DNA of 64,000 nucleotides from Gordius sp. MW1 (lineage: Eukaryota > Nematomorpha > Gordioida > Gordea > Gordiidae), in the NCBI GenBank assembly GCA_964036665.1, contig OZ038531.1, positions 8,866,168 through 8,930,167 of the forward strand, given 5' to 3'. Shown here in pieces: positions 4,464 through 59,723 of the stretch. Made by a program: the position numbers and the translations under genes. The notes beneath the pieces were generated by a model. It saw only the letters and a list, made by a program, of their open reading frames with translations, did no database searches and was not told the DNA's origin. How positions within the stretch are numbered: position 1 is the first letter of the stretch; every line of letters begins with the position of its first letter.

Positions 4464-4736
4464 ACTGATGCCAGTGGCGTAAATGACGGGGAGGGGGGGG
4501 GGGAACGGGAAATCCCCCCCCCCCCTAAAAAAATTATTTTAGATCTAAAGTTTATATTTTATAGTTGTGCAACGTAACTGACTAAGTAAGACACTTATTA
4601 ATTATTATGAATGACTTTCTTTATGTTTTATACCAGATTTTATAATTTTGATGTTGAAATAAAAATGTTATAGGAAAATTTTTAAAAATTCCCCCCCCCC
4701 CCAGGAGAAAATCCTGGCTACGCGCCTGACTGATGC
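4464..4736. mobile_element. Poly-G/C MITE, CAGTGGCGTA end, 8-bp TSD
   Basis: The element is 4472-4728 (257 bp). It starts CAGTGGCGTA and ends TGGCTACGCGCCTG, and is flanked by perfect 8-bp repeats ACTGATGC (4464-4471, 4729-4736). G runs near the left end and C runs near both ends could pair. There is no coding capacity. It is the same general family as the element at 1796, with more diverged tips. Confidence 0.85.
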
Positions 4737-7700
4737 AATTTGCAAGAATAATGTAAAAGAATATTTAACATAAAAAATATGGATTGTATTAACTAATTAA
4801 TAATTTAAAGTCCAATGTAAATTTAACAAAACCCTATCACAAGCTCATGGTATAAAATAAAACAATAAAAAGGTAGTTTTTTATGTAATTTTTGACCTAT
4901 TAATAGTAATCCTTCGCAAAATATCTAGTCATTTTATAACAAAATACTAGTTGTAAATAATTTTTTATCACTATTTTTTAACGGATGATAACATTTCATA
5001 ATATAAATACGAAATTCTGATGTTAGTTACAATAAAATAATTATTAAATTAGATGGTTTTATTGACGATTTCATTATGATGACTAAATTTAAAAAGCGTG
5101 CACTGTTTAAATTTTAAAGTTTGAAATAGATCGCTGTTGTCTAACTTAATATAGGTATACTCATAATATTTAAAAATTAGCGCTCTTTAATTTAACTTGG
5201 AAAACAACCTTCTAAACTTCTCAATTTTACGTAATGATTCACATAGTAAGGGCGCAAAATTCGAATTTGGGACAAGACTAAAATATAATTTTGATTAAAA
5301 CCCTTTGATGTTTAACATATTTAGTCTATGCTGTAGCCTCAAACAATGCTTGAAAGAATAGGTAGAATAGTAATTACATAAATTAATAATTACCAAGAAA
5401 AGACTTAATTCATTCTTCACACTAGGAGCGAGCGTCAAGGGAATCGAATATAGACAAATTAAAAGTGTTAAACGTATAAAATGAGCGGCATCTTTTATTT
5501 CAAGTAGCTGCAAAAGGGAGTTGGTTTTTCCTGAGGCCCTAACTTGATAGAAATTAGTAAATGTCACTTGTAAAACCACTTTTTTGTCCTTATTAAAAAA
5601 GGGTCGACATACTATACAATTATAAATTCAGTAAATTCTTATTAAATTTACTCAAATGCCTATCAGGGTACATCGATAGTTGATTATTTGTAAACGTAAT
5701 ATTTTTTAAATATTCCTTTTATTGACATCTATAAGTGTAAATACACAAATTTCAAATTAAATTCAAAATTTAGAATAAAATTAGATATTAATTTATATGT
5801 TTATTTAAAATTCCCTACGGATCGACTCTAAGTTTAATTATTGGTTGCATTGCTGAACGAATTTATTACGTCGGAGTAAATGCTTAATTTTTCGAAGTGT
5901 TTCTAACATTAATGGACCATAAATTTTAATGACTTTTCCTCATTAAGTCAAATGAATATCATCCCATTTAACATCTGGTTAATTTAACAATTGGTTACAT
6001 TACATAAAGAGCAGCTTTTAGCAATGACACTAAAACATTTATGGTATTTAGTAAATTATTGCTGAAAGATTTCGGTCTCATCTTGATACATCGAGGAGAG
6101 GACAAAGAGGGTAAATTTGATGTGGAATAATAATAATAATAATAAGGTTAAGGAGTATATCAAAATGAAAGGAAAAGTTTTGTTTCGTATACATAATTTC
6201 AATCAACCACATATAATATTTGACTTATGTCTGTTATTAATGCACTTAGTGGCCATTACTTTTAAGGTTTTTAAGGACATTTAATTATAAGTGGATATAT
6301 GACCTGACTATTTACCACAAGTTGCAATTTGGGAGGATCAAATGCATTGTTTCATGTGATGATGTGTAGGTGTAAATTACTATCACTTTGTTATATGTAT
6401 TAGACTGAGCGGTGTTGCGAGGATTTATAGCATTGTGGCCAAAACATTTTGCATTAATGTATAATTAAATATTAATATGCAAAATAGATTTTAATTTGTT
6501 AGTACCCCACTCTTTCGTGCACCCTAATATATGTAAATAGGGGACTTAACGTTGCATTAACATTTAGCAGGTTTACTATATCATAGGTCGATAGACTTTT
6601 TATCGTTTGAAAATTGGATTTGGATGTAATACACTTTTTAATGGGCAGTTCTCCATGGTTAATCTTCTAATTTGTTAGAACTATTTGTTATAAACAGCAA
6701 TGCTCACTTACTTAGATATGATATCTAAACTATTTTTAAAGCTCTTATAAGCTTTGTATTTTATAACGATTTTCATTTTAACTTAATATTTAAGTTCATA
6801 ATATCATCAATGCCAAAGATAGCCGTCTAAAAATCTATATGTTATTTATTATTAATTTGACTAATAGCAAATACTTTAGACTGTTCGATCCTCATTAATT
6901 AATCAGTCTATGATAAGAAAATGCTTAGGCTTAAAAAGTAAAATAGTGATAACATGATGACATTCTAATTCTTTATTTTCAAATAAACTTACTTTCTATT
7001 ACTTTCGTTTAGCTTAACTATTGCATTTTAATATAAACATCATAAAGCTCTAAAAATAAAATCTTTTGTTATAACTATATTTTCATAATTATACCTGGTA
7101 TTTCGAAGGTTTGAAAACTCGGTGTATAAATTATAAGATGCGATTTGATTTGCAATGATCCAGTATTTATTAAAAAGGCCATTCCTCTTAGACAACCTTA
7201 TTATTTAATAAAAATTGGCCTAGGTAAGAACTTTAATAATCGCAAAAGTGCCGCTGCTACGTCTGAAATTTTAAAGTCCACCTTGCTTATGGCAGGACCA
7301 GTCGATATAAAAATGATAATTATAATATATCTATTAATAAATTGAATCATAGAAGAAAGAAATTATATAATAAGCTTAAATGTTACAATTTAGAAAAAGA
7401 TTAGCCGTTTACTGCTTTTGATTAATTATCGATATAAAAATAGGTTACATTCTAACTTTTACAAATTTATCTTATATGCTTTAATAGATATTAATCATTG
7501 ACAAATGTAATTTAATGTGAAAACATTGATTATGGAAGAATGATATTAACAAATTTGCCTCTAAAATATGGTTTATTTTAAGGGAATTTAGAATAATTTA
7601 TGAATATTTTATTAGTCTACGGGGGAAGGCCTGTTATGCCACGTTAATTTCCATTTTCCTTATAATAGAATGACCCTTAAATTTCATTGATTATACTATT

Positions 7701-12475: not shown

Positions 12476-15400
12476 CTTTCCACAATAAGGGCAAATTGAG
12501 ATTAACAAATAATAGTAGATGTCAATCAACAATAAATTTGAACAATTTTTAAGGAAAAAATATATTGCATATAAATACAAACTGTGAGAAATTTAAAAAT
12601 TATTATTAAAACGTAATGTAATATATTCCTGTAGAAAATTAAGACGTGCATAAGCAAATGACCGGGAGCATATTAGCACCTATTAGATATTGTATTTCAA
12701 TTTTTTAAACCTGATCAAAAGAATAACAAAGTCCATAAAATTTTAAACAAATGGCAACATTTAGGCTTGGGTTCAAATTGGACCTAAGAAACTTATCGTG
12801 CTTTTTAGTCTGGCATTAGATTCGTTTAAGCTGGCTATCATGTTCCATCCGCGCGGAGAAAGGAAAAAAAAGAAAAAGGTCCGCTGGAACACGATTTAAA
12901 AAAGGTTTAAAGGGGAATCAGGAATATTTAGGAGAATTGAGGAGGATAGGGGGAATATATCGGGAAGACGGCAGGTCAGGGATATATGCCTTCCCAGGAG
13001 ACTTACTTTTATTTCTATACGCTACATCTTTATTATACTAAAGACTTTGTAAAAATCTCAGAATCTAAAAAATGATCGAAACGCGTTACAAAATTCAATG
13101 ATGCGTGTTCGTGTTGATCAATAATAATATATGGGGGAAAGAAATAACACACACGTATAAGCGCGTGAGGGGGGGGGGACACGTAAGTAAAATTAAATGT
13201 AAAAGAAAAGACGTGTACTCCAGTATACCACAATCGTGTTCCGGCGGCGGAATAAGATAAAGGAAAAGGTCCGCTGGAACACGATTTAAAAAAGGTTGAA
13301 GGGGAATCAGGAATATTTGGGAGAATTGAGGAGGATAGGGGGAATATATCGGGGAAACGGCAGGTCAGGGATATATGCTTCCCCAAAAAGAGACTTACTT
13401 TTATTTCTATAGGCTAAATCTTTATTATACTAAAAACTATGTAAAAATCACAGAATCAAAAAAATTATCGAAACGCGTTACAAAATTCAATGATGCGTGT
13501 TCGTGTTGATGAATAATAATATATGGGGAAAAATAACAAAAACATATAAGCGCCTGGGGGGTGGACTGAAAGTAACACACACGTAAGTAAAATTAAATGT
13601 AAAGGAATAGACGTGTAAGACGTGTATAATCCAGTATACCAAACCTTATCATGTCCCAGCGGCGCGGAATAAAATAAAGGAAAAGGTCCGCTGGAACACG
13701 ATTTAAAAGAAAAAGGTTTGAAGGTAGAATCAGGAATAAGTTAGGATATATTGAAGAGGATAAGGAAATATATAGGGAGGACGGCAGGTCAGCGATATAT
13801 GCCTCCCCAAAGAGAGACTTACTTTTATTTCTATACGTTACATCTTTATTATACTAAAAAACTATGTAAAATTCACAGAATCAAAAAAACGATCGAAACG
13901 CGTTACAAAATTCAATGATGCGTGTTCGTGTTGATCAATAATAACACAGCTCGACAAATATTGACTTTGAGATTGTATCCCGCAATCCGACCAATATGAT
14001 AGAAAATTTTGCGCTGAAAAATAATATGCTTTTAGTTTTTTTCTACGATTACCAGCTCTTAAGATATATGAGTTTGAAAGTGCCAAAAATGCCCTTTTTA
14101 AGGCTAAATTGCCATGGTATTTTCAATATTTAGTGAAAATGTAGATTAAAGTTTCATCTATAGGTCCATTCTTATATTTTTTATATCTCCCTTATACTCA
14201 AATTTATACGCGTTTGCGTAGTACCCCTCTCCTTATCAAAATTCGTCCCACTATGTCTGGAAAAAGGAGTTCATTAGAGTTCATACTACACACGCGCTGT
14301 TTACAAACAGATCTCCCTCTCTCTTTCTCCATCTCTTCCACTCCCGCCCTTATTCTATCCAAGCACACTTGAAGGGAGCGGGAGTGGAGGAGAAAGAGAG
14401 GAGAGTAGGTAAAGGGAGAGATATATGTGTTAGTAAACAGCGCGTTTGTAGTATGAACTCTAATGAACTCCTTTTTCCAGACATAGTGGGACGAATCTTG
14501 ATAAGGAGAAGGGGTTTACGCAAACGCTTATAAATTTGAGTATAAGGGAGATATAAAAAATAAAAGAATGACTATAGATGAAACTTTAATCTACATGAAT
14601 ATATTACTATTTTTTACTAAATATTAAATACCATGGCAATTTAGCCTTAAAAAGGGCATTTTTGGCACTTACAAACTCATATATCTTAAAAGCTGGTAAT
14701 CGTAGAAAAAAAACTAATAACATATTATTCTTCAGCGCAAAATTCTCTATCAGAATTATTGGTCAAATTGCGGGACCTGTGTAATATACGGGGGAAAGAA
14801 ATAACAAACACGTATAAGCGCGTGGGGGGGGGGGGGGGGTGGAGGGAAAGTAACACACACGTAAGTAAAATTAAATGTAAAGGAAAAGACGTGTATATTC
14901 CAGTATACCACACTGGCAATGTTTAGATTAAAATGTAACACAAGACGTTCAAATTTACTATATGTCGCATCTATCAGCAACATATAGAAATTGGTTGGTT
15001 TCAAGATTTCAAACTAATGGTTTAAATGAAAAAAACACCCGTGCACACCAAAAATGTTGTAAGTCAAGGAAATAAGGCATTCCTTAGATTACCTTTTAAA
15101 CCTCATATTAGAGGTTACTTGTCTCAAATAACGGATTAATAGCAACCAAATTCATTATTATCTTTCTAAAAGTTTATTTGAAAAAGAACGGACTCGAAAC
15201 AAGGCAAAAACAAAATAAGGAATTTCGGGCTCGGACAAAAAAAATTTAAATATCGAACTGTATTTGGGCCAAAGAAAATCCATTTTGCAAGGTTCTAGAC
15301 ATGTTATGCAGCATTTTTTATGAAGCAGCCAATTTAAAAAAACCTATATGGTAGAACTCTTTCAGGAGGATGAAGTTAGGACACAAGTGAACAAGATTCA

Positions 15401-18400
15401 AAAGAAAAGGTAATGGCCCAGATGGAATACCTATGGAAGCATTGCTCGGGTGTCGTGAAGAAGGTGTAACCACCATGACGAATGCTTTAACAAGATATTG
15501 GTAGAAGAGCGAATTCCTAATCAATAAAAGGCATGCACGGTTATACCCTTATTTAAAGGCAAAGGAGACCCTCAGGATTTTGGCAATTACAGAAGTATCA
15601 ATCTAACATGCCACTTTTTGAAGCTTATGGAAAGGATCTTAGTAACAAGGCTGAAAAACTAGGTGGAAATATCGGCTAAACAATTCAGATTTGTGGCCGG
15701 CAAATTCACAACCGATCCAATCTTCGCACTAAGACAAATGATGGATAAATATGGTAAAAATTTATCGACTTGGAGAAAGCTTATGACACGGTCCTTGTGA
15801 TTTAATATGGTGGTGCCTGAGAAAACAATATATCCCTGACGCATATATACAACTTATGAAAAATATTTATGAAGCCTCAAACTCTTGTCGTCACAACAGT
15901 TGGAGACTCTAAACCTTTCGGGTTAAAATTGGATTACACCAAGGATCTGCTTTAAGTCCCTTTTTATTTAATATAATTATAGACACGATAACGAGAGACA
16001 TTCAAAAGCTATGGCCATGGTGTATGCTATATGCCGTTGATATAGTACTATGCGAGGAAACGAAGGAGAAAGTATTTGAAGAAGCCGAAAAGTGGTCAAA
16101 GCGTTTAGCTGGATATGGTTTAAAGGTCAACGATCAAAAAACGGTAGGGGAGACCGAGCTATCGTAGCCATAAAAAACCAAACATGCCAGGACAAAAATG
16201 TTCAACCGATTTTCATATAATTTTTTCAAAAAAATGTTCTTGTCCACTTGTTTACTATAGGAAAAAATATTATGGCAATACAGCTAATAGATTTTTTATA
16301 GGAAGGTTTCAAAAAAAAGACAACTCTCATAACTTTAAATGACCGGGGTTAAGGTGACCTTCAAAAGAGGCTAAGGTGTTCTCTATAATTTAAAGTTGAA
16401 ATAGTATAAATAACTTAAGTGATGTGTTTAAATATTAAAAGTTTGTCTTTTGTAGTATATCAAGAATCATATAATAATTTATAATTGCTAAAATAGTAAA
16501 AGATTATCTTTCATAACATACTAGATGAACCTGGCAAACGTTGTTTTACCATTTACCCGGGTGTATTAGCAGAGGATAATATCATATTAGCCTTGTCAGA
16601 GTCGGGCGTCGTCTCTACACATTCACCTGGTCCGTAGTCCCTAAGTCTGGACCATTTACGACCACTACCCTGTACTAGAGGCCTGCAAACCCGAACCCAA
16701 AAGTGTTTTTAAATTTTCAACCCAAACCCGACCCGAAAGCGTTTTTAAAAACCCGACCCGAAGGTGCTTTTAAATTTTCAACACGGACCCGACCAAGTAG
16801 AAAAATTTGAGGATAAAAAATTTATTCGACAGAAATGATCATACAAAATTTGATTAATAAATTTATTAAATTGATTTACTATAATTATGTATAAATATTG
16901 TGGCGTCTACAATTTCGGGGCGTAAATTAGCCCTTCTCTCTTCTATAATTCTCCCAGCAGTGGAAAAGGACCTCTCGCTACTGGTAGACTATAGACTATA
17001 AAAAATAATAAATAATCATTTGTTAATATTTTGCCTTTCGGGATTCAGCTTTAAATTTCAATTTGAATTCAAATTAAAAAAATAGAAAAGGAAATTGATT
17101 AAATGAATGATTGATTACAATTAGTTAATACAATTCCATATTGTTTTACAAATATTATAAATAGCATAAATTTAACAAATACGTTTCGTTCATTTTGTAA
17201 TGTAAGATTCATATCCTTTGACCCGACTCTATAAATCCAACCCGACCTGAAAGCATTCTAAAATTTTCAACCCAAACCCAAAAGCGTTTTTACCGAACTC
17301 GACCCGACCCGACTTCGGGGCGGGTTCGGGTGACCCGTGCAGGCCTCTACTTTGTACGCGCAATCGGGTAGGGCGTCGGGTTGACCGTGCAGATCTCTAT
17401 TTTAACACATCCCCTTTCGAGCCATCCGTATCTCGCTCTCTTCGTAATACTATTTCACCTGGTTGATACATCCAACATAACATGTCGCAGTAAAGATATA
17501 TTGGCAGGACGGGTGATCATAGCAATGCGAGAGGATATACGACATTTTTGGTTTTTCCATCAGGTGCGAAAATGAACAGATTCTTGGGTGTGACAACTCT
17601 GGAGCAAGCACATATAATTGACCATGTGAAAAACATGGTTTTTCCAAATTCAATCCAGCAACGCTCAGTGATTGTCCTTGGGCTTTATTGATTATAATTG
17701 CAAAAGCTAGGCGCACAGGTAACTGCAGGCGCTTGATTTCAAAGGAAAAATGGGTTGGACGCATTGGCCTGCGCAGAATCAGTACATCTTCTCCTTTACT
17801 TTTGCCGCTGATGATTGTCGCTTCAATGACGTTTGGCAGTAGTTGTTCTACAAGTCTGGTTTCGTTACACAGCTTAGGTGGATTTAAATTGCGAAGGATC
17901 ATTATAGGTGAGCCAATTTGTGAGGTGGCATTCCCGATGGTTCCAATGAATTTAGAAATTCAGTTGGATAATTCACCGCCTGATCTGCATTGATAACTGT
18001 GTCAACAGATGTGTAAGTAAATGGTTCACCGGGAATGTTCAATAGGATGCGATTATTTAATTTGTTGACGTCGTCATACTTCGGCGCCAAGATTGCCCGT
18101 TCACAAAGCCAGTCGTGATTTGTGAAGTTAATAGCAATTTCCGGGAACACCATATTTTCGACATCTTCAATTGATGACTGTATTTTGCAAAAGTGCGATG
18201 GAAATGATAATTCGTGCGTTGTAGGTTCAATTGGAAATTTACCGTTTCCCAAGTCCAACAGTTGATTGGCAAATGATTGCGCAGAAGCATCTAGAAGTAA
18301 ATGAACACGCATGTTGGTGGTTAGCGTGATTATCTTCACACTTCTCCAAAAATATGACGCTTTTAGGCAAGCATTGAGCTCATCAGAGGGTGTTGACTTT

Positions 18401-21400
18401 GGGATGACTGGCAAAGTTTGACGGAAGTCACCGGCTAGCAGCAAGAGAGCTCCTTCCATTGGACGTGCAATTTGTCTCAAATCGGAGTGTAGGATCCAGC
18501 GCCTCGAGTGCTTTTTTATGTGCCATCGTACATTCATTTTAAATGATGATTGTGAATGTCTTAAGTACCGTGGCAATACCCGAGTTCCTACTAATGTTGC
18601 AAGTAGGAGTTTCATTAAATATAGATTCAATGGGAGTTTCAAAGTTGAATGCGCTGTGCGGCCTCCATCGAGTAGCGTGGCTGCTACGCCCGATGACGCG
18701 ACAGCGAGAGCTATCTTATTATTTGTCCGAATTTCAGCCAATATCAGATTAAAAATAAATGTTTTTCCGGATCCTCCTGGCGCATCTAGGAAAAGTAGGC
18801 CTCCGTTACCGTTTGCGACGTATTTCATGACGGTGGTATAGGCATGTTTTTGGTCAGCGACTAAGAGTATTTCCTGAGCGTTGACAAACAATTGTAGCTG
18901 AGCCACGTCGTATTGTTTTTCACGCCATAAGTCACTGTCGTGAACGTTGCTTCTGTCACGTTTAGGTGCAGGCAATCCGAGCTGACATAACATTTCATTG
19001 TTTATGGATAGACATATGTCCTCAAGTAATATAAGAGCTCGATTGAAGATGTCCTCAGAAAATGGTATCTCCATATCCGGAGGCACTCTACGTACTTGTA
19101 AAAGGATATCTTCACTGAGGCTTTCTTTGTGTGTATCCCAAAGATCTTTCGAATTAGACGGTGCGCAAGTTGTCAAAATGATCGCAAATAAAGTGCGTAT
19201 TTGGTGCGGGATACATGTGAGCGATGCTTCCTCTAATGTCGTATTCCAATGTCGGTCATTTTCAAGCAAGCGAAGTTTGAGACATGCTTGTCTATATGTC
19301 TCACACACTTCACTAATATAGGTCCTTTGACATTGTGGAGCAACATTCTTAAAAAATAGCATTCGGCGTTATTGGGATGAACAGTATACATTCGACCCAA
19401 AGCATAAAACATACGTACGCCTGAATATCCAGGAACTATTGTGCCTTGTTTTCTTCTTTGAAATACTTTTTTGATGAGTTCCTAGTGTAATATTTTGGGA
19501 TTTCGTGGTAGAGCAAAGTTTTTGCGAAAAGATCCGTTATGCACAACAGGAAAAAAGCTGTCAGTGTTGTATTCGGTGGTTGCGCCGCTCTTTGCACAGC
19601 GTTCTCTTCCGTGAAGTAGACACATTGGCCATTTTCCAAGTGAACGGCGAGATGTACAACAGTTGGATAGCGTTCGTGAATGTGGAACCCGAGAATGCGC
19701 CAGACAGCTTCATTACTGCTGATGTAACGTCCCATTTGAAATTGTATTACATCGGTTGCGTATTAGTAAGTCCAAAAACTGCCATATCACTGCCTTTGGT
19801 GACGTATTTGCAGATGTATTTGATAGACTTCACTGAATTGCAATACTCCACGTTTATGTGGGCCTTGAACATTTTTGAAAGCAACGGAGTGTATGGGACG
19901 ACCCATCTATTGTCGACATCTACGGGAACAGTTTTCACTTTGATGGTGACTCTATGACCTCCATCGTTTGGATTACGGCGTCTATACAGCGGATAGCCGT
20001 CGCCACCAGTTATCGTTTCTTGGCTCATTTCTCTTGCATATTTTTTGGTGCATTTTCCGTCTTTCATACATGGTGAATCTCTATTCATTGCTCTGCAGGG
20101 TCCATGAATCATATGACGACTGATGATTTCAAATAGTAGCGGATCTTCTTGCCGGGCAGTAGGCTGATATAATATTATCAATATGAGTAGGGAAAATTGT
20201 GTCCTTCAGCCAAACTAGGATGTGAGCGTGTGGTAAGCCTCTTTTTTGCCATTCTATGGAATATAGCCAGCAGGTAGTTTCTCCGTAAATGTGATTTTTG
20301 GTGATGACATCGATGAGGCGCATTAGTTTTTGCCTGAAAAATTTGGCGGTGAGATCATGTCGATGAGATGATGCTTGGCGTGCCCAAAGCAAATGAGTGA
20401 TCTCAGTCCAAGCCGGATTGCAGGTGAAGGTAATGAAAAGATCTGGACATCCGTATTTGGGCACATATGTCATCGCATCTTGTGTATATTGATGCATGTG
20501 TCTAGGACTGCCGGTATACGTAGCTGGAAGTATGACCATTTGTCCAACATTGCTTGCGTGTCCATCATGTTCGATTGCATCTCGCAAGTGAATTTAATTT
20601 TCGGCACGGAGTAACCTCGGATTAAGACGGATGAAAAGAAGGCGTTCGCTCGATTTTTGCGTACATATCGACAATGTATTGGTGGAATAGGTGTCGGCAC
20701 TTCAGGATGTGGTTGTATTGCTGAGCTCTAATCATTATGCGATATGCCTAAAAATCCATAGAAGACACCTGTAAGAGAAAGAATTTCAGTAGATTAAGAT
20801 CACATATTATCATTTTCGCTAGAACATCGTAAAAAAAAGAGTATAACATTCACCTTTTTTGTTGTCGCGGCCCCTGAATCAGGAATAATTTGCATCACAT
20901 TAAAGTGGTATCCGTCTTCTCCTTGGCAAAATAGTATGGAATATTGAAGGGCATCATATGATCTGTGTGTTGCATCAATACTTTGCAGGTTGTCATCCCT
21001 TCTGTAGAAATGATATCTCGACGATCAAATTCTATTCCGACCATTACGATTGCCACTTCATCGATTGTTGGTGCATTAAAGCTTCTTTCATGTGCGCCTG
21101 ATGGTGATCTATCTGCTTTGATTGTAATCATCCGTTGGCATTCGCTCTAATGCGATTTTGAATAATTTAATATGATTTTTGTTGTGGAATAAATGTTGCA
21201 ATTCTATGATGATTTCACGTTTGACTCCTGCATGAATCCCACAACGTCGATCAGCCTCCGTATTGCCCATGAAATAAGTTTGCAGAAACCTTAGTTCGAT
21301 ATCTGATATTGGAAGAAGGGAACCGATTTGATGGTAAATTTGGCCTTGTACTTTGAATGTGGGCATGTAACCTCCATCATTAAAATTTTTCGTTGCTCCG

Positions 21401-24400
21401 AACAATGTCATTTGGAAGCATGCGTTGTACTTGCGAATGTGTTGGAGGAAGTGTTTGGACAATGTATTAGTTCCAGATACATAAGATAAGAGCGGTTCAG
21501 GTGGATCAACCAGAGGGAGCAAATTGACTTTGCCATTCGAACAACACATTCCAGGATTTTCTTTATGGAACCGCAAAGCACGACAATGCAAACACATCGT
21601 ATTCATTTGGCCAATCATAACATTGGGGTGCATGCTATAATCAAACGCTACATCATAATGGAACGCTGCTAATTTCAAACTGGCTCGCGAACTATATGTT
21701 GAGCGTCTGTATCGTGAGCGCATATTGTCTAGTCTTTCGATTCGCTCTTCAGCTGATTATGTAGCTCGTAAAGTTGTGGCTCGTGAAGTTGTGGCTCGTG
21801 AGCGTTTAGTGGCTAGTCTTTCGACGCTCTTCAGCTGATTCGGTGGCTCGTGAGCGTTTAGTGGCTAGTCTTTCGATTCGCTCTTCAGCTGATTCGGTGG
21901 CGCGTGAAGTTGTGGCTCGTGCGCCTAAATTTTCTAGTCTGTCGCTTCGCTCTTCCGATGTCTCAGCTGCTATTGTAGTTAAGTTTCTCTTGCGATTGTC
22001 GCGCAATCGTACTTCACGATTTTGAGGAGTTTCAGCTCCTCTCCTTGTTTTATTTATTTTTGATTTAGGTATTATTCTGCCGAATAATTTTTTTCGCATT
22101 GGCATTTGTATAACTTTTCAACTGGTAAAAATATATATTGAACATGATCTATATAGAGTACTGCAATATAAAAATTCTCTTGGCAAAGCATACATGCAAT
22201 AAATTGCTGATTTATTAAATAAACTTTATTTTTACTTCAATAACCGCTTTGTCATCATATATGCCCTAAAATTTCAACATAATTGAGGTAAAATAATCAA
22301 CTATTTTGCAATAATTATAAAATTTACCATTTAATAAATCAGCAATTTATTGCATGTATGCTTTGCCAAGAGAATTTTTATATTGCAGTACTCTATATAG
22401 ATCATGTTCAATATATATTTTTACCAGTTGAAAAGTTATACAAATGCCAATGCGAAAAAAATTATTCGGCAGAATAATACCTAAATCAAAAAGAAATAAA
22501 ACAAGGAGAGGAGCTGAAACTCCTCAAAATCGTGAAGTACGATTGCGCGACAATCGCAAGAGAAACTTAACTACAATAGCAGCTGAGACATCGGAAGAGC
22601 GAAGCGACAGACTAGAAAATTTAGGCGCACGAGCCACAACTTCACGCGCCACCGAATCAGCTGAAGAGCGAATCGAAAGACTAGCCACTAAACGCTCACG
22701 AGCCACCGAATCAGCTGAAGAGCGTCGAAAGACTAGCCACTAAACGCTCACGAGCCACAACTTCACGAGCCACAACTTTACGAGCTACATAATCAGCTGA
22801 AGAGCGAATCGAAAGACTAGACAATATGCGCTCACGATACAGACGCTCAACATATAGTTCGCGAGCCAGTTTGAAATTAGCAGCGTTCCATTATGATGTA
22901 GCGTTTGATTATAGCATGCACCCCAATGTTATGATTGGCCAAATGAATACGATGTGTTTGCATTGTCGTGCTTTGCGGTTCCATAAAGAAAATCCTGGAA
23001 TGTGTTGTTCGAATGGCAAAGTCAATTTGCTCCCTCTGGTTGATCCACCTGAACCGCTCTTATCTTATGTATCTGGAACTAATACATTGTCCAAACACTT
23101 CCTCCAACACATTCGCAAGTACAACGCATGCTTCCAAATGACATCGTTCGGAGCAACGAAAATTTTTAATGATGGAGGTTACATGCCCACATTCAAAGTA
23201 CAAGGCCAAATTTACCATCAAATCGGTTCCCTTCTTCCAATATCAGATATCGAACTAAGGTTTCTGCAAATTTATTTCATGGGCAATACGGAGGCTGATC
23301 GACGTTGTGGGATTCATGCACAAACGTGAAATCATCATAGAATTGCAACATTTATTCCACAACAAAAATCATATTAAATTATTCAAAATCGCATTAGAGC
23401 GAATGCCAACGGATGATTACAATCAAAGCAGATAGATCACCATCAGGCGCACATGAAAGAAGCTTTAATGCACCAACAATCGATGAAGTGGCAATCGTAA
23501 TGGTCGGAATAGAATTTGATCGTCGAGATATCATTTCTACAGAAGGGATGACAATCTGCAAAGTATTGATGCAACACACAGATCATATGATGCCCTTCAA
23601 TATTCCATACTATTTTGCCAAGGAGAAGACGGATACCACTTTAATGTGATGCAAATTATTCCTGATTCAGGGGCCGCGACAACAAAAAAGGTGAATGTTA
23701 TACTCTTTGTTTTACGATGTTCTAGCGAAAATGATAATATGTGATCTTAATCTACTGAAATTCTTTCTCTTACAGGTGTCTTCTATGGATTTTTAGGCAT
23801 ATCGCATAATGATTAGAGCTCAGCAATACAACCACATCCTGAAGTGCCGACACCTATTCCACCAATACATTGTCGATATGTACGCAAAAATCGAGAGCGA
23901 ACGCCTTCTTTTCATCCGTCTTAATCCGAGGTTACTCCGTGCCGAAAATTAAATTCACTTGCGAGATGCAATCGAACGTGATGGTCACGCAAGCAATGTT
24001 GGACAAATGGTTATACTTCCAGCTACGTATACCGGCAGTCCTAGACACATGCATCAATATACACAAGATGCGATGACATATGTGCCCAAATACGGATGTC
24101 CAGATCTTTTCATTACCTTCACCTGCAATCCGGCTTGGACTGAGATCACTCATTTGCTTTGGGCACGCCAAGCATCATCTCATCGACATGATCTCACCGC
24201 CAAATTTTTCAGGCAAAAACTAATGCGCCTCATCGATGTCATCACCAAAAATCACATTTACGGAGAAACTACCTGCTGGCTATATTCCATAGAATGGCAA
24301 AAAAGAGGCTTACCACACGCTCACATCCTAATTTGGCTGAAGGACACAATTTTCCCTACTCATATTGATAATATTATATCGGCGAACTGCCCGATCCGCA

Positions 24401-27400
24401 AGAAGATCCGCTACTATTTGAAATCATCAGTCGTCATATTCATGGACCCTGCAGAGCAATGAATAGAGATTCACCATGTATGAAAGACGGAAAATGCACC
24501 AAAAAATATCCAAGAAAAATGAGCCAAGAAACGATAACTGGTGGCGACGGCTATCCGCTGTATAGACGCTGATGGAGGTCATAGAGTCACCGTCAAAGTG
24601 AAAACTATTCCCGTAGATGTCGACAATAGATGGGTCGTCCCTTACACTCCGTTGCTTTCAAAAATGTTCAAGGCCCACATAAACGTGGCGTGGAGTATTG
24701 CAATTCAGTGAAGTCTATCAAATACATCTGCAAATACATCACCAAAGGCAGTGATATGGCAGTTTTTGGACTTATTAATACGCAACCGATGTAATCACAC
24801 AATTTCAAATGGGACGTTACATCAGCAGTAATGAAGCTGTCTGGCGCATTCTCGGGTTCCACATTCACGAACGCTATCCAACTGTTGTACATCTCGCAGT
24901 TCACTTGGAAAATGGTCAATGTGTCTACTTCACGGAAGAGAACGCTGTGCAAAGAGCGGCGCAACCACCGAATACAACACTGACAGCTTTTTTCCTGTGC
25001 CAAAAGGATGTTTTCGCAAAAACTTTGCTCTACCACGAAATCCCAAAATGTTACACTAGGAACTCATCACAAAAAGTATTTCAAAGAAGAAAACAAGGCA
25101 CAATAGTTCCTGGATATTCAGGCGTACGTATGTTTTATGCTTTGGGTCGAATGTATTCTGTTCATCCCAATAACGCCGAATGCTATTTTTTAAGAATGTT
25201 GCTCCACAATGTCAAAGGACCTACATTATTTCAATCCATCAAAACCATCTATGGTGAAGTGTGTGAGACATATAGACAAGCATGTATCAAACTTCGCTTG
25301 CTTGAAAATGACCGACATTGGAATACGACATTAGAGGAAGCATCGATCACATGTATCCCGCACCAAATACGCCCTTTATTTGCGATCATTTTGACAACTT
25401 GCGCACCGTCTAATCCGAAAGATCTTTGGGATACACACAAAGAAAGCCTCAGTGAAGATATCCTTTTACAAGTACGAAGAGTGCCTCCGGATATGGAGAC
25501 ACCATTTTCTGAGGACATCTTCAATCGAGCTCTTATATTACTTGAGGACATATGTCTATCCATAAACAATGAAATGTTATGTCAGCTCGGATTGCCTGCA
25601 CCTAAACGTGACAGAAGCAACGTTCACGATAGTGACTTATGGCGTGAAAAACAATACGACGTGGCTCAGCTACAATTGTTTGTCAACGCTCAGGAAATAC
25701 TCTTAGTCGCTGACCAAACATGCCTATACCACCGTCATGAAATACGTCACAAACGGTAACGGAGGCCTACATTTCCTAGATGCGCCAGGAGGATCCGAAA
25801 AAACATTTATTCTTAATCTGATATTGGCTGAAATTCGGACAAGTAATAAGATAGCTCTCGCTGTCGCGTCATCGGGCATAGCAGCCACGCTACTCGATGA
25901 AGGCCGCACAGCGCATTCAACTTTCAAACTCCCATTGAATCTATATATAAATGAAACTCCTACTTGCAACATTAGTAGGAACTCGGGTATTGCCACGGTA
26001 CTTAAGACATTCACAATCATCATTTGGGATAAATGTATGATGGCACATAAAAAAGCACTCGAGGCGCTGGATCGTACACTCCGATTTGAGACAGATTGCA
26101 CGTCTAATGGAAGGAGCTCTCTTGCTGCTAACCGGTGACTTCCGTCAAACCTTGCCAGTCATGCCAAAGTCAACACCCTCTGATGAGCTCAATGCTTGCC
26201 TAAAAGCGTCATATTTTTGGAGAAGTGTGAAGATAATCACGCTAACCACCAACATGCGTGTTCATTTACTTCAAGATGGTTCGGCGCAACCATTTGCCAA
26301 TCAACTGTTGGACTTAGGAAACGGTAAATTTCCAATTGAACCCACAACGCACGAAATATCATTTCCATCGCACTTTTGCAATACAGTCCTCAATTGAAGA
26401 TGTCGAAAATATGGTGTTCCCGGAAATTGCTATTAACTTCACAAATCATGGCTCTGTGAACGGGCAATCTTGGCTCCGAAGTATGACGACGTCAACAAAT
26501 TAAATAATCGCACCCTATTGAACATTCCCGGTGAACCATTTACTTAAACATCTGTTGACACAGTTATCGATGCAGATCAGGCGGTGAATTATCCAACTGA
26601 ATTTCTAAATTCATTGGAACCATTGGGAATGCCACCTCACAAATTGACTCTGAAAATTGGCTCACCTATAATGATCCTTCGCAATTTAAATCCACCTAAG
26701 CTGTGTAACGAAACCAGACTTGTAAAACAACTACTGCCAAAAGTCATTGATGCGACAATCATCAGCGGCAAAAGTAAAGGATAAGATGTACTGATTCTGC
26801 GCATGCCAATGCTTCCAACCGATTTGCCATTCCAATTCAATCGCCTGCAGTTACCTGTGCGCCTAGCTTTTGCAATTATAATCAATAAAGCCCAAGGACA
26901 ATCACTGAGCGTTGCTGGATTGAATTTGGAAAAACCATGTTTTTCACATGGTCAATTATATGTTGCTTGCTTCAGAGTTGGCACACCGAAGAATCTGTTC
27001 ATTTTCGCACCTGATGGAAAAACCAAAAATGTCGTATATCCTCTCGCACACCCGTCCTGCCAATATATCATTACTGCGGCCTGTTATGTGGTATCATTAC
27101 TGCGACATGTTATGTGGTATGTATAAACCAAATGAAATTCTTAGTTATGGTAATACGAAGAGAGTGAGATGTGGATGGCTAGAAAGGGGATGTGTTGCAG
27201 GTAGAGCCCTGCACGGTCAACACGACGCCCGACCCGATTGCGGGTACAGTGTAGTGGTCGTAAATGGTCCAGACTTAGGGACTACGAACCAGGTAAATGT
27301 GTAGAGACGACGCCCGACTCGGACAAGGCTAATATGATATTATCCTCTGCTAATACACCCGGGTAAATGGCAAAACAAAGTTTGCCGGGTTCATCTAGGT

Positions 27401-30400
27401 GCTAATATTGTTTAATATTAAATTTGTCTTTTATAGCTTATAAAGCTTCATAAACAAATTTATAAGGTAAATCTGTTTTTACAGACATTATTATGTTGAA
27501 ATCATTGATTTAAATGCATTATATATAAAAGTGTCACATAAACTTGACAATCATAAAATGGAACAAAGTTTACATATTGGTTCTGGCGTCCTTGATGATA
27601 TCAGGTCTTTTAATAAAAGATGAAAACCAATCAGCACCTGCTTATTCCTATTCTACCCATGAATTAGGCATTGATAAATTCAATTAGGCATTGATAAATT
27701 CAATTGTATTGCCATTTGATAAGCCAAATACCAAACCTTAACAAATTTGACCATATAATGATAAAATACTTGTTTAATGGTCACACCCAAATAAAGTTTG
27801 CTTAATTAAATATGATGCTAACTTCTCCTCCTGCTACTTATTAAATATCATTCTTGTTTTACGTTCCTTAACAAATGATTCTCCTTTTAAATTTATTGTG
27901 ATATCTTTTTGAGGTAGAATAGCTAAAGTTGTTTGTAAGGCGAAATCTTTCAGTCTAATCTTCTCTGTCATAGCTTTAAGTACTTTATTTTTCATTTCAT
28001 AATCTTGTACAAATTTGTTTTACATTTGTAAGTTTGCACCATTTTTAATGTATGAATGAATTAGAAATATTTATAGCCCCGCTCTAGATAGCCCCATGAT
28101 TAAAATTTTTTGCAAATTGTTTTGAAATAGTCATCTTCAAAAAAATCATTTATTTCTAGTTAATTATTATAGAAAAATTCATACGTTTTTACCTAAAATT
28201 AAATTGGAGCTGAAAGATGATATAGTTTTAAAGTAATTAGCAAAATAGAAAAATTAAAGGAGCTTTTAGCCCCCAAAAATCTTGTTTTTACTATTTTTTA
28301 TACCTGAGATGCGACTATATAAAGTACATTTAAAATATAAATTTGACTGGGTACAAATTAATAACATGAAAATTATTTAAGAAGATAAGGATAGCCCCGA
28401 GACACGTATAGCCCCGGTCTCCCCTATACATGGAAATGAACGTTACAGGCAGCCATCGATAGATGACCATCTAAAATACCTAAAAGTAGACAGGTTTACA
28501 TCAGAGGTCAGATTTGTTTGGAATTTTATGCCCGAACCCGGCCCGGTTCAATTTTTTACTCAACCCTTCTCGGTGTCCGCCCGGGCCCGTCCGAAACTTA
28601 GAAGCTGCTCGAACTGCCCGGCCCGAAATATTAAATTTGCCAGGCCCGAAATATGCGATCTCAAATTCTTTCGACCACTATTAAAAAATAAGCATTAAAT
28701 TAATGGCATATTTAAAACAAATAAAATCTAATTACTATATTCTCTAAAAGTCGAATGATTTTTTTAAATTAAACTTTTAATCCTAAATTTTAATCCTTAT
28801 AGGCCAAAAAAAGTTAGTATTTGGTCTTTTTAAAAAATTTGGCCAGATAGCACTGGCTAAACCGCTCTAGGTCACAATATTTCGATAGGTTGATTGCTAA
28901 TGCATTGAACAAACATGTTAGAACGTTTAAAAATCATATAATAGCAAAATATTTGAATGCAGCCGATGTTTATAAATATATTTATGAAGCAATTTTTTTA
29001 ATTAAGTTTAAAATATACGTATTTAATAAATAATCTTACAATAAACAAAATTATACTCCCCTTTTAAAGTTAACCCGTTTTCCCTACCCTATAAATAAAC
29101 TTCTTAATGAATAAAATTAGTTTAATTAGTGAATCTGCGCTCTGTTAAAATTTACTTTTTTGATAAAAAAAACCAATAATTTATCAGTAGAATCTAAATG
29201 CAATTTATGGATAACTTTTTTAACTTAATGCAAAAAAAAGTTATAGAAATTTATTATCATAAAAATTAGTAGTAGCTTAGCGAGAGCGACGATAAGGGAA
29301 TAAAATAGGCGAATTGGAGAAGCTTTGTTAAACTATTTGTTAAAAAAATAAATGATATTAGAATGAAATTAAACACTTGCAGGCAATGTATCAATTTGGG
29401 CGTGACGATTTTGTACCATGTATAGACGGCACATGTCAATTACGAACAATGAAAGGGCTACATAAATATAAATATTTCCATCCTTTCCATAGACCTAGCT
29501 AGGGACTTGATGGAAATAGAGGGGTTCGGGCGAATATTGTAAAAATAACTTGGGGACGGATAAAGAAATCAAGTTTCTTAACTTTTTTAGCATTTCATAT
29601 GCAATCAAATAAAAAGTAACAAAATAATACACTATCAAATAAATCTCATTAAGCCCGAATCCTATCTTCGCGCCCGCCGGAAAAGAAAAATTTAGGACAG
29701 TTGCCCGGCCCGATCCGGCCCACGGTCCGGGCCTGTTCGGGCAGCGGGCCGGGCAATCTGGTCTCTGATTTACATACCTCGACTCGATGCTACATCAAGA
29801 GGGAGGTTGCGTAACAGAAGTCAATGCCCCGACCCAAAAAGGATGGCTTAAATGGCGAAGTATATCCGATGTAATAAGCGACAAGAAAATGCTAATATGG
29901 TTGATGAGCAGTGCTTACAAATCCATCGTAAGACCGGTGTTACTCTATGGAAGTGAAACACGGGCATTAAACACCACGTAAAGAAAGCTATAACAAGCCA
30001 CAGAAATGAGAATGACACAGTGGAGCTTAGGGTATATTAAGCTCGACCATAAGACGAATGACTTTTTCATGACAAAAATGGGTATTCAAACTATGGCGGA
30101 CATAATTAACGAAAATCGGCTAAGGTGGTATGGGCATATATTAAGAAGGGACACGAATGACTTAAATCGAAAAGTAGTGGACATGGAGGTACCGGGGAAG
30201 AGAGGAAGAGGACGACCCCGTGTCATGTGGAAAGGGAAAGTCGATAACGTTATGAAAACTAAAGAGATTAGTCAAGACATGGCACTCACCCGGTCATGTT
30301 GGAAGAAACTTATCAAAACAAACCCCACGACTGAGGGATCAAATAACCGAAAAAGAAGAAGCATGTTATCTTAATACCAAAAAATTACAGCCAAAAAAAT

Positions 30401-36532: not shown

Positions 36533-37571
36533 TATAATTTATAAAGTTAGTTTCCAATAATGGTAGTTTAGGATTGATAAAATGCGAGGGTGGAAATGGG
36601 TTTAGATATTTCGGTCGTCCAGCGACCATTATCAATAAAAAAAAAAGAGAAAAAAAGGCAACTTACAAGTGATGTGAATTACCAATGAACGAGAAGGTGT
36701 CGACAAGTTTTAATTTATAAACAAAAATAATGAAAACTAGTTGAAATAGGAGGGTGAATAATAGCGAACACCGGTTGGAACAAGAGAGTTAACACTTATT
36801 GAAATAATGGGATAAACATTAAGATAAAGATGGGGTAAACAACTTTAAGATAAGGATAAGGTAAAATACAAAAGGGGATTATAAAAATGAAGCAATAGCA
36901 ACTATAAGAATAGTATACTATTCTTCATGGGCGTAGCTAGCTTAGAATTAGATAGGAGCAATAATTATTCAAGGAGGGGCAAAATCAAGGGCGTAGCCAG
37001 GTTTAGGATTAGGGGGAGGCAAAAAGTTCAAAAGTCCAATTAGGGGGGGGGGGGCGAAACACTATTTTTTCCAATTTTTACAAAAATTTACATTGAAAAA
37101 AAAAGAAAAATTCTCATTTAGGGGGGGGGGGGGGCGGCCGCCCCCCCTGCCCCCCCCCCCCCCCCCCTGCCTACGCCCATGCTATTCTTATAGTTGCTAT
37201 TGCTTCATTTTTATAATCCCCTTTTGTATTTTACCTTATCCTTTATCTTAAAGTTGTTTACCCCATCTTTATCTTAAATTTGTTTATCCCATTATTTCAA
37301 TAAGTGTTAACTCTCTTGTTCCAACCGGTGTTCGCTATTATTCACCCTCCTATTTCAACTAGTTTTCATTATTTTTGTTTATAAATTAAAACTTGTCAAC
37401 ACCTTCTCGTTCATTGGTAATTCACATCACTTGTAAGTTGCGTTTTTTTTTTCTCTTTTTTTTTTTATTGATAATGGTCGCTGGACGACCGAAATATCTA
37501 AACCCATTTCCACCCTCGCATTTTATCAATCCTACACTACCATTATTGGAAACTAACTTTATAAACTTAGA
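36533..37571. repeat. Long perfect-centre palindrome (~390-bp arms)
   Basis: The left arm is 36533-36915. The right arm is 36916-36925 plus 37190-37571. Before the MITE inserted, the two arms met with no spacer (centre TAGTA|TACTA between 36915 and 36916). The arms are nearly identical, with landmarks TTTCGGTCGTCCAGCG, AACACCGGTTGGAACAAG and GAGGGTGAATAATAGCG. The flanks carry a direct ACTTAGATATGTAT on both sides (36500-36513 and about 37566-37579), possibly a target duplication. No ORF. It is a foldback-type or long-TIR element. Confidence 0.85.
36918..37189. mobile_element. Poly-G/C MITE at the palindrome centre, perfect TSD
   Basis: Element 36926-37181 (256 bp): CATGGGCGTAGC at left, GCCTACGCCCATG at right. 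The 8-bp duplication CTATTCTT is perfect (36918-36925, 37182-37189). It contains several G13-like and C18-like runs that can fold on each other, and a second internal GGGCGTAGCCAGG start near 36989. Confidence 0.9.
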
Positions 37572-38210: not shown

Positions 38211-39525
38211 GCTATGCAATTTATGGGCTGTTTTTGGTGCGTCGTCCGTCGTCCGTCGTCCACCAAGTTATTGGCGCCAGCTTTGTGACCTGGATATCCC
38301 GGGTTCAAGCCAGGGAGAGGACGAATTTTTTTTTAATATTTTAAATTAAATTAATATTTTGTTCTTGTTAATACCATTGATAATATGAATTTTTGACCAT
38401 CCGCTGGCTACTGACCAATGAAAAAAATGAACATTGGCCAAATAAAGCGAAATTTTTAATTGCTATATGCAATTTATGGTATTTTTTCGTCTTTGAATAG
38501 GTTAACATTGATAATTACCCTATGCCCTTTTCTACAAGGGCCTACGCCTCTACTGATATGGGTCCCTGTACCCCTTACCAAAGCCTATGCCTTTACTGAT
38601 ATGGGTCCCTGTGCCCCTTACCAAACCCTATGCCTTTACTAATGTGGGTTCGAATCCCGGAGAGGGCAAAATTTTTTATTTATTTTTTAAATTAAATTAA
38701 TTAATTGTTCTTGTTAATACCATTGATAATGTGACCTTTTGGCCGTCCGCTGGCTACTGACCCATGAAAAAAATGACCATTGGCCAAAATGTGTATCGAA
38801 ATTATTTTTTTCTTTTTTTTTTGACTATTATGATTGTTCCTGTTACTACCATTGCTATTGTGACTTTTTGGCCGTCCGTTGGCTGCTGACCAATGGAAAA
38901 AAATGACCATTGGCCAAAATGTGTATCGAAATTTTTTTTTCTTCGTTTTTTTTTTACTATTATGATTGTTCCTGTTACTACCATTGCTATTGTGATTTTG
39001 GCCGTCCGTTGGCTGCTGACCAATGGAAAAAATGACCATTGGCCAAAATGTGATTCGAAAATTTTTTTTTCGTTTTTTTTGACTATTATGAATTTATATC
39101 CACTTTTACCGTGTCCTGGCTGCTGACCAATGGAAAAAAATGACCATTGACCAAAATGTTATTCGAAAATTTTTTTTTAGTTTTTTTTGACTATTATGAA
39201 TTTATATCCACTTTTACCGTGTCCTGGCTGCTGACCAATGGAAAAAAATGACCATTGGCCAAAATGTGATTCGAAATTTTTTGTTTTTGTTTTTTTGACT
39301 CTTATGAATTTATATCCACTTTTACCGTGTCCTGGCTGCTGCCCAATGGAAAAAAATGACCATTGGCTAAATTGTGAATCGAAATTTTTTTTCCGTTTTT
39401 TTTGACTCTTATGATTGTTCCTGTTAATACCATTGAAATATGACTTTTTGGCCGTCCGCTGGCTGCTGACCAATGGAAAAAAATGACCATTGGCCAAAGT
39501 GAGCATCAAAATTTTTTTTCCGTTT
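38211..39525. repeat. SINE-body minisatellite array, left of LINE
   Basis: Repeated units of roughly 100-120 bp contain GGCCGTCCGCTGGCTGCTGA and CCAATGG with AATGACCATTGGCCAAA, each followed by a T run and GACTATTATG. About eight units are recognisable between 38380 and 39525. Before the array are tRNA-like tails (GGGTTCAAGCCAGGGAGAGG near 38292; GGGTTCGAATCCCGGAGAGG near 38646). The short palindrome AATGACCATTGGCCA recurs in every unit. Confidence 0.8.
38523..38640. repeat. ~43-bp direct repeat
   Basis: CCTATGCCTTTACTGATATG followed by GGTCCCTGTGCCCCTTACCA occurs about three times with small changes, next to a tRNA-like B-box. Confidence 0.7.
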
Positions 39526-49629: not shown

Positions 49630-50160
49630 CAATTTGAACTATTCCTAAGGAGCAATAAGACGGAGACAGATGAGCAAAAAGCAGCTCTATTATTAACCAG
49701 CCTTGATGGGGAGGCATTCCAATTAATACTAGAGGATTATAGACCTCAAGACTTGACAGGAATTACATATAAAGAAGCTAAAAATCGGTTAAGAAAATTA
49801 TTCCAGAGGAATTCATGCGCGAGGACAAAGAGGTATGAATTCTCATAGGTTCGACAAGGCCAGGGAGAGACGATACACGCGTACGCTAATAGACTCAAGG
49901 CCGGAGCTAACAGCTGCATTTTCGGAAAGGAAGAATTGCAGAACAGAATCGTCGACCAATTTATTATAGGATTGCGCGATAGAAGCTTACAGGCGAGACT
50001 GTTGGCAGAAAATGACATCAAATGGGACCGCCTACTAAAGCTGGCGTTAACGGCCGATTTGATAAATGGGGGGCTAAGCACCTTGCAAGACGGGTCCAAA
50101 GAGGCGTGGAGCGTAGTGGCGAGACGAGAAGCGTGGCCTGGGCTGGTCCGAATTCCTAGG
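49630..50160 (+). pseudogene. Gypsy gag (capsid) remnant
   Basis: Reads FELFLRSNKTETDEQKAALL, then LLTSLDGEAFQLI, a TAG stop at 49846-49848, and continues ETIHAYANRLKAGA, DQFIIGLRDRSLQARLL. This is the retrotransposon gag/capsid fold pattern. The frame begins only 40 bp after the LTR, so the gag N-terminus appears lost. No zinc knuckle is visible before the protease. Confidence 0.8.
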
Positions 50161-50223
50161 TTAAACCATGCTTTAGATGTGTTAACAGTAGATATATATA
50201 TATTAATAACGAGTTATTCCAAT

Positions 50224-58730: not shown

Positions 58731-59723
58731 GGATTAGTTGAGACACCTGAAGAAATCCTTAATGGAAGTTCTATCGCTCTTTCTTTGTAATTGAATGGAG
58801 GTGGACCTCTGAAAATAAAATTTGGATAAAAAAAATTATTAAAATTACTTGAAAGAAACTGTCCTTCGTGTATCTTCACCAACGACAGGAGGAATATCCA
58901 TCCCTAGGTCACGACTTACTATCAACTCAATTAATCTCCTATTTATAGGATGCATGTCTCCGTTAGGAAGAGACAAAGTAACGAAAGGAAGTGAACCAAT
59001 AAGCTTTTGGTCCAAGACATGTTGTGGTCTTAACCGTGAAAACAATTTTTTAAATCTATTCCCTATAATTCTTTCGTTAGTCAAAGCAGAAAAGGGCGAA
59101 AAACTAAGGTTTGCCAACTTTCGTGAATCTCTATCTAAGAAATGACTAGAAATTACCGCAGGGGCAATGTTAAATCCGTCAAAGCTTTTATAAATGGGCA
59201 CAATTTCGCGCCCAAACATTCTAATGCCCGAATGATAGGCGAGATGAAGTATGACCTCATCAAATCGCCTTTGAAACTTATCTGTATACTTTGGTGTTCT
59301 GATGGGGAAATAATAAACATTGGACCTGTGCTCGGCCTCAACGTACTTCTCAAATCTTTCCCCAGATTGTCTGGGTAAATAAGCATATTCCATGTTTATT
59401 AAATCATCGATGGTGTTGGAAGCTGTAGATTCCAACGACCATCTTTGGCGTCTTTGGTTAAAAACAAAGGCTCTTATAATATTGTAAAAGCCGTGCATCA
59501 ATTGATAACATGTTTGAAAAATATTTGAATGTACATAGATTGTCAAATCTCGCCGTTTATAATTACGCCCAAAAGATTTAAACCCATGAAAATATATTAA
59601 ATTTATAAACCAATAATAAAAATAACCAACGCTACTTGTTAAGAATTTCCATCCTCGCACCATACATCCCCCACAACACAGCAATATTAGTTGATTAAAG
59701 ATAAGGTTTCCAATGAATCGCAT
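58685..59723 (-). CDS. Unrecognised two-exon gene
   Basis: Join of 59723-58849 and 58808-58685 (332 codons) across a 40-bp GT-AG intron (58809-58848; donor TTCAA|GTAATT, acceptor TTATTTTCAG). The reading frame continues exactly: SF-K-GPPPFNYKERAIELP, ending DLASESD. The N-terminal ~45 residues are hydrophobic (LILLCCGGCMV; SSVGYFYYWFINLIYFHGF), perhaps two membrane segments or a mis-set start. The rest is basic and polar, with FNQRRQRWSLES, YFPIRTPKYTDKFQRRFDE, FSRLRPQHVLDQKLIG and LPNGDMHPINRRLIELIV. No family was recognised. Long open frame, intron phase and a duplicated 3' end support a real gene; more 5' exons are possible. No neighbouring gene hints at its role. Confidence 0.55.

What the first reader, a model, noticed from the sequence alone, without database searches (positions are those of the whole stretch)
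16521..27398. Two Helitrons fused head-to-head into a ~10.9-kb palindrome
Arms of about 5 kb mirror each other around a 108-bp unique loop. Both outer tips carry the Helitron 3' CTAG plus hairpin, and both 5' sides meet at the loop. The arms share old lesions (the stop after RRKTSH, the break before the next Rep segment) but have private ones (left Walker B frameshift; right Gly-to-Glu in Walker A and a ~14-bp deletion). So an already decayed Helitron was duplicated in inverted orientation and then both halves diverged. One 3' tip is followed by T as expected, the other by G, which fits one true insertion end and one rearranged end. Inference: a rolling-circle or break-repair template switch created the inverted dimer.
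Basis: partly seen in the sequence, partly recalled or inferred. Interest (0 to 1): 0.75.

Follow-up and report, generated by a model that had tools for sequence, protein, structure and literature searches.

The report
Mirrored Helitron pair with gene conversion
Two dead jumping genes of the same family lie head-to-head as a near-perfect mirror, and the DNA near the mirror's centre appears to have been copied from one side to the other more than once while the outer ends stayed about as different as strangers.

Summary
The palindrome is real: left arm 16521-22220, 108-bp loop, right arm 22329-27398. Both arms are dead Helitrons with 3' tips outward. (1) Neither arm keeps its 5' end: the family's TCTTAT terminus lies 224-239 bp upstream of 22221 in 8 relatives checked, so the loop is right-element sequence that the left arm lacks. 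(2) Both outer flanks are parts of one other repeat, from which about 150-160 bp is missing; this argues against a misassembly. (3) Arm divergence is stepped: 0.45% in the 2 kb next to the loop, 2.65% in the next 2.4 kb, 6.7% in the outer 0.7 kb, while other copy pairs average 5-6% throughout. Derived bases that only the two arms share are dense near the loop; 3 lie in the outer 0.7 kb and none in the last 0.4 kb. Arm-to-arm gene conversion, strongest near the loop, explains the shared lesions there. Best reading: two Helitrons inserted head-to-head in one repeat, a central deletion removed both 5' ends, and conversion then zipped the inner arms. A copy made at insertion time is not excluded. 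The loop junction is unique in the genome (1 match against 465 normal ones). Palindrome conversion is a known kind.

The parts
16521..22220 (-). Left arm: Helitron with 3' end (CTAG + hairpin) at 16521 and 5' part truncated; lacks about 332-347 bp of the family 5' end
22221..22328 (+). Loop: 108 bp of Helitron sequence kept only in the right element (element positions 1-108 of the right copy)
   Evidence: continuation upstream present in relatives
22221..27398 (+). Right element: Helitron with 3' CTAG at 27395-27398; lacks about 224-239 bp of the family 5' end
22329..27398 (+). Right arm proper (mirrored part of the right element)
22329..24330 (+). Inner zone, element 109-2110: arms differ 9/2000 = 0.45% (mirror on the left roughly 20220-22220)
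24331..26722 (+). Middle zone, element 2111-4502: arms differ 62/2340 = 2.65%
26723..27398 (+). Outer zone, element 4503-5178: arms differ 39/582 = 6.70% (columns 4825-4905 masked), like other copy pairs
16676..17349 (.). Private hAT-like nonautonomous insertion in the left arm, TIR TAGAGGCCTGCA, imperfect 8-bp TSD (CCCTGTAC/CTTTGTAC, 6 of 8 alike); empty site in right arm reads CACTGTAC
   Evidence: family label from recall, not from a database hit
23953..24459 (+). Right-arm Rep fragment, Pfam Helitron_like_N PF14214, E 2.9e-42
20132..20593 (-). Left-arm Rep fragment, Pfam PF14214, E 3e-42
17905..19368 (-). Left-arm helicase fragment, Pfam PIF1 PF05970, E 2.1e-41; Walker A (GGSGKT) intact, frame change before the Walker B stretch (motif names from recall)
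16146..16520 (+). Left flank: part of a repeat with about 60-bp internal units, interrupted by the palindrome
27403..28400 (+). Right flank: further part of the same repeat; 27399-27402 (GTGC) is unmatched filler or mutated target

Best explanation
Two Helitrons of one family inserted in opposite orientation, 5' ends facing, about 150-160 bp apart in the unit-repeat part of one other repeat copy. A central deletion with an end-joined junction then removed both 5' ends and the DNA between them, leaving two 5'-truncated dead elements as a palindrome with a 108-bp asymmetric loop. Since then arm-to-arm gene conversion, most likely started by breaks or stalled forks at the loop and running outward to different distances, has rewritten the inner 2 kb recently and the next 2.4 kb longer ago, and has left at most traces in the last 0.7 kb. 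Shown: the palindrome, the truncation, the interrupted repeat, the stepped divergence and the outward loss of shared derived bases. Inferred: two separate insertions rather than one copied, the order of events, and that conversion starts at the loop.
For: Stepped divergence 0.45 / 2.65 / 6.70%; a three-segment fit has the best BIC of one to six segments, 1016.4 against 1062.2 for one and 1018.9 for two. Other copy pairs average 6.15 / 5.30 / 5.90% in the same zones, and 0 of 52, 0 of 36 and 56 of 66 pairs lie below the arms, so regional constraint does not explain it. Of 149 derived sites unique to the palindrome, 65 are shared (mean element position 2138) and 84 private (mean 3683); 0 of 100000 permutations reach this separation. 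Both tips end exactly at CTAG while the junction lies inside both elements, as expected for two insertions plus one central deletion. Both flanks belong to one repeat, with 153-163 bp between the two points in 8 of the 12 relatives where both could be placed (17 given). Other inverted Helitron pairs show conversion-like stretches: in L009/L010 about 3.2 kb at about 1% with a shared 2.4-kb insertion, bounded by 15% and about 30% divergence.
Against: The right tip is followed by GTGC, not by a clean T plus target. Three derived bases unique to the two arms lie in the outer 0.7 kb (element 4627, 4659, 4770), where other pairs average 0.37 (unmasked), so the tips are not wholly unrelated. The outer divergence is raised by a cluster of left-arm changes at 4584-4616. 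Relatives share few derived bases with each other, so no pre-insertion marker separates two insertions from a copy made at insertion; an apparent left-arm/L038 marker proved to be an alignment artefact. The third step gains only 2.5 BIC units over two. 'Loop newest, tips oldest' rests on one locus, and in L009/L010 the stretch alike between arms does not touch the spacer: the half nearer the spacer differs more (6.62% against 1.59%).
Confidence: 0.55

Rival explanations
1. One Helitron inserted and was later copied in inverted orientation by break repair or template switching, with or without later conversion.
For: Arms share unique derived bases out to element position 4770; the right end is not a clean CTAG|T; target DNA is missing.
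Against: The copy would have to stop exactly at CTAG of the second tip although the target flank shows no Helitron homology there. Outer-zone divergence equals that of other copy pairs, so the copying must be about as old as insertion. Without conversion the stepped divergence is unexplained.
Confidence: 0.25
2. The inverted dimer arose during transposition itself (rolling-circle template switch or fold-back at the 5' side), inserting a unit with two 3' ends, followed by conversion.
For: Exact CTAG at both tips; outer zone about as old as the family; one unit inside one target.
Against: The loop junction occurs once in the genome against 465 normal continuations, so no such unit amplified. Passages read on Helraiser report head-to-tail junctions and tandem arrays; the word head-to-head does not occur in the main text of PMC5876387.
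Confidence: 0.15
3. Assembly artefact: a fold-back read or two haplotypes joined.
For: Perfect 992-nt inner match; reads are not available here.
Against: The flanks are successive parts of one repeat, not mirror copies; private insertion, private 10-bp deletion and 84 private derived sites.
Confidence: 0.03
4. The inner zone is alike because it is under constraint, not because of conversion.
For: The inner zone includes the 5' part of the element.
Against: Other copies differ 6.15% there on average, and the arms differ 5.35% from other copies there; both arms are broken.
Confidence: 0.02

Closest known systems
Canonical Helitron (Helraiser/Helibat type; PMC4778049, passages read)
   Same: 3' CTAG with hairpin near the 3' end; in relatives 5' TC and insertion next to A and T; Rep (PF14214) and PIF1 (PF05970) fragments
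   Different: Both copies here lack the 5' end and are coding-dead; they lie head-to-head
Mammalian Y chromosome palindromes kept alike by arm-to-arm gene conversion (P6: PMC3723533, passages read)
   Same: Inverted arms homogenised by conversion with multi-kilobase tracts (mean 2068 bp there)
   Different: Those arms are nearly identical (about 0.02% arm-to-arm per the passage); here divergence climbs in steps from loop to tips and the arms are dead transposons
Caenorhabditis inverted-repeat gene pairs (PMC1803023, passages read)
   Same: Kilobase arms, 126-bp spacer at one locus, arms kept alike beyond sequence conservation; conversion proposed
   Different: Genes rather than transposons; the word gradient does not occur in that text
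Asymmetric central deletion of palindromes, 'center-break' (PMC8701086, passages read)
   Same: Unequal loss of the two inner ends leaving a short unique spacer
   Different: Described there for transgene concatemers; here inferred for a natural transposon pair
Template switching that homogenises short inverted repeats in yeast (PMC8604942, abstract read)
   Same: Homogenisation of inverted-repeat arms around a spacer
   Different: Short arms there; 2-4 kb here

Membership tests
Helitron (RC transposon) | RepHel: Helitron_like_N plus PIF1 helicase | tested here: met
   PF14214 E 2.9e-42 (right) and 3e-42 (left); PF05970 E 2.1e-41 (left only; right-arm pieces past 25759 were not submitted); fragments only
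Helitron (RC transposon) | 3' CTRR with hairpin just upstream | tested here: met
   CTAG at both tips, hairpin ends 8 nt before the tip
Helitron (RC transposon) | 5' TC terminus | tested here: not met
   Absent from both arms by truncation; present as A|TCTTAT in 7 of 8 relatives checked and G|TCTTAT in the eighth (L022)
Helitron (RC transposon) | Insertion between A and T without TSD | tested here: inconclusive
   Left tip CTAG|T; right tip CTAG|G; the other 3' ends (25 rows, 23 distinct places) are all followed by T
Palindrome under arm-to-arm gene conversion | Arms more alike than their age, with shared derived bases | tested here: met
   for the inner 4.4 kb
Palindrome under arm-to-arm gene conversion | Observed conversion between alleles or species | not testable with these tools
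   Single assembly; no relatives are held for it
Inverted duplication of one copy | Uniform arm divergence and shared pre-duplication mutations along the whole arm | tested here: not met
   Stepped divergence; 3 shared unique sites in the outer 0.7 kb, none beyond element 4770
Mobile palindromic element family | Loop junction repeated elsewhere | tested here: not met
   1 genome match with up to 3 mismatches, this locus

The most novel reading that the evidence does not exclude
Inverted Helitron pairs act as local conversion machines: breaks at the loop start conversion tracts that run outward by varying distances, so a dead transposon pair records a dated staircase of repair events, and conversion can move whole insertions between neighbouring elements (as L009/L010 suggests).
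Probability: 0.3. Interest if true: 0.55.

Novelty: new member of a known kind. Interest (0 to 1): 0.4.

Why it matters
Dead transposons evolve largely without selection, and the hundreds of relatives elsewhere in the same genome supply a built-in clock. A truncated inverted pair therefore lets one date when each stretch of a palindrome was last converted and how far tracts run from the loop. It also warns that lesions shared by two palindrome arms do not prove that one damaged copy was duplicated.

Tried and rejected
Duplication of an already decayed copy as the cause of shared lesions: weakened by the outward loss of sharing.

A left-arm/L038 subfamily marker: rejected after reading raw sequence; the two lost different units of a 26-bp repeat, and columns 4825-4905 were masked afterwards. 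The figures for the outer 0.7 kb are therefore superseded, except the 0.37 quoted as a rough yardstick.

Nested insertion of the right element into the left one: rejected, because the 5' part of the left element does not follow 27398 (right flank).

The idea that the right 3' tip was copied from an L017-like locus (flank TGGCTAATATT): the longer flanks printed do not look alike; judged by eye.

Target variant TTGCTAATATTG: the pattern search found only the window itself (1 mismatch) and one place reading TTTATAATATTG.

That sample is biased toward this Helitron family and its target repeat. In the three L015 pairs the inner half differs less than the outer (7.38 against 13.75%, 3.31 against 6.59%, 5.23 against 9.09%), but I have no family yardstick for them.

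Dropped rows: one search used 20 of the 23 relatives (L025, L026 and L039 left out), matches under 84% identity or 120 bp and matches on a relative's other strand were not used, and columns with fewer than 5 relatives were skipped in the derived-base counts. One search gave 17 target copies (L030 left out) and placed both points in 12.
Full report
Observation. The window lies at C5:8866168-8930167 of a 211.8-Mb assembly in 12 contigs. The palindrome described is present: inverted match of about 10 kb at 95.0%, arms 16521-22220 and 22329-27398, 108 bp between, the innermost 992 nt of the arms identical. Both tips carry CTAG and a hairpin. Pfam finds Helitron_like_N (PF14214) in both arms and PIF1 (PF05970) in the left arm (right-arm pieces past 25759 were not submitted). 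The left arm further carries a private 674-bp insertion with inverted ends at 16676-17349; the hAT-like label is from recall.

The 5' ends. In the 26 other 5' copies listed, the sequence matching 22221 onward is preceded by a conserved stretch (agaacatatagacatc and close variants). In 8 copies checked the family begins with TCTTAT, preceded by A in 7, 224-239 bp upstream of the base matching 22221. So the right element is truncated, the left one is truncated 108 bp further, and the loop is simply right-element sequence that the left one lacks. I see no microhomology at the join (sequences printed). The junction pattern occurs once in the genome with up to 3 mismatches; the normal continuation occurs 465 times.

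The target. The left flank from 16146 to 16520 and the right flank from 27403 on match the same copies of another repeat, which carries internal units of about 60 bp. Of 17 copies given, both points could be placed in 12; the distance between them is 81-163 bp, 153-163 in 8 of 12. In the window this piece is absent. Flanks that are successive parts of one repeat are not what a fold-back misassembly would give. The right tip is followed by GTGC before the match resumes; whether this is filler or mutated target is open.

Divergence along the arms. Relatives were projected on the right element. One search used 20 of the 23 relatives, each counting only where it covers a bin, and columns 4825-4905 were masked because of an alignment artefact found. 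Arms differ by 9/2000 (0.45%) in element 109-2110, 62/2340 (2.65%) in 2111-4502 and 39/582 (6.70%) in 4503-5178. Other pairs average 6.15% (n = 52), 5.30% (n = 36) and 5.90% (n = 66); the number of other pairs below the arms is 0, 0 and 56. A three-step model has the best BIC among one to six steps, though two steps are close (1016.4 against 1018.9). Bases shared by both arms and seen in no other copy used number 65, those private to one arm 84, with mean positions 2138 and 3683; none of 100000 permutations reaches this separation. Sharing does not fall smoothly: per bin it runs 9, 10, 7, 9, 6, 6, 5, 8, 2, 3, 0. Three shared sites (4627, 4659, 4770) lie in the outer zone, and a cluster of left-arm changes at 4584-4616 raises the divergence there. 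Overall, the time since the arms were last alike grows from the loop outward, and in the outer zone it is close to the age of the family.

Interpretation. Conversion between the arms explains the inner and middle zones; constraint does not, since other copies differ normally there. How the two elements came to lie head-to-head is less certain. Two insertions plus one central deletion explain exact 3' tips on both sides, absence of both 5' ends, missing target and outer divergence of family age. A copy made at the time of insertion would also give tips of family age, and the unclean right junction and the three shared outer sites lean that way. Asymmetric central deletions of palindromes are described for transgene concatemers (PMC8701086, passages).

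Other inverted pairs. In 316100 bases held (the window and loci fetched for this family or its target repeat) several inverted pairs occur. C3:8720-8730 kb (L009/L010) has arms about 1% apart over about 3.2 kb, including a 2.4-kb insertion in both, with 15% divergence outside and about 30% inside, although both borders are still Helitron; at element 714-900 both arms differ 22.6% or more from the other copies compared but 1.69% from each other, and at 950-1432 they differ 26.4% from each other. This looks like a conversion tract that carried an insertion across; it does not touch the spacer. L024 rises from 2.42% near the spacer to 6.14% outward, where its two copies differ from others by a median of 4.86% and 7.95%. 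L012 is 3.51% against a median of 5.2% on only 228 sites. The L039 pairs are shifted matches of one tandem array without a consistent direction; the three L015 pairs differ less in their inner halves, with no family yardstick.

What is known. Arm-to-arm conversion is established for Y palindromes (PMC3723533, passages) and proposed for Caenorhabditis inverted repeats (PMC1803023, passages); inverted repeats redirect break repair in yeast (PMC6103520, abstract). Helraiser papers report circles with head-to-tail junctions and mention tandem arrays (PMC4778049 and PMC5876387, passages). In the listings I saw no title or abstract start describing a Helitron palindrome with graded arm divergence, and one search listed no paper; most full texts were not read and most subscription journals are not held.

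Verdict. A real, well-formed natural record of a known process, with one useful correction: shared lesions in a palindrome are not by themselves evidence of a duplicated wreck.

Noticed in passing
L009 and L010 (C3:8719900-8730999): Second inverted Helitron pair with a sharp-edged stretch of about 3.2 kb at about 1% divergence that includes a 2.4-kb insertion in both arms, bounded by 15% and about 30% divergence.
   Followed up: partly
L013, L019, L022, L037: Helitron 5' ends (TCTTATATA, in L019 TCCTATATA) sit directly after the CTAG (in L022 a variant ending CAGCTAG) of another Helitron: tandem head-to-tail insertions.
   Followed up: no
window 39503-42027 +: Two overlapping long open frames, the second with a reverse transcriptase domain (RVT_1 E 4.9e-12 in 40216-42024); repeats lie on both sides.
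   Followed up: no
window 50160-52420 +: LTR-retrotransposon-like fragments: aspartyl protease in one frame, RNase H and integrase zinc-binding domains in another.
   Followed up: no
window 58845-59744 -: 299-aa open frame without a Pfam match at E 0.001.
   Followed up: no
window 13978-14775: A stretch that matches its own reverse complement at 84.6%, a separate smaller palindrome.
   Followed up: no
window 36535-37569: Short inverted pair, 96.7% arms of about 380-390 bp with a 262-bp spacer; inner half 1/192, outer half 3/190 differences.
   Followed up: no
L052-L071: 20 fetched loci hold further relatives that share the region around element 4680-4878 and then leave the full-length family, many with a similar TTTTTAAATG continuation.
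   Followed up: no
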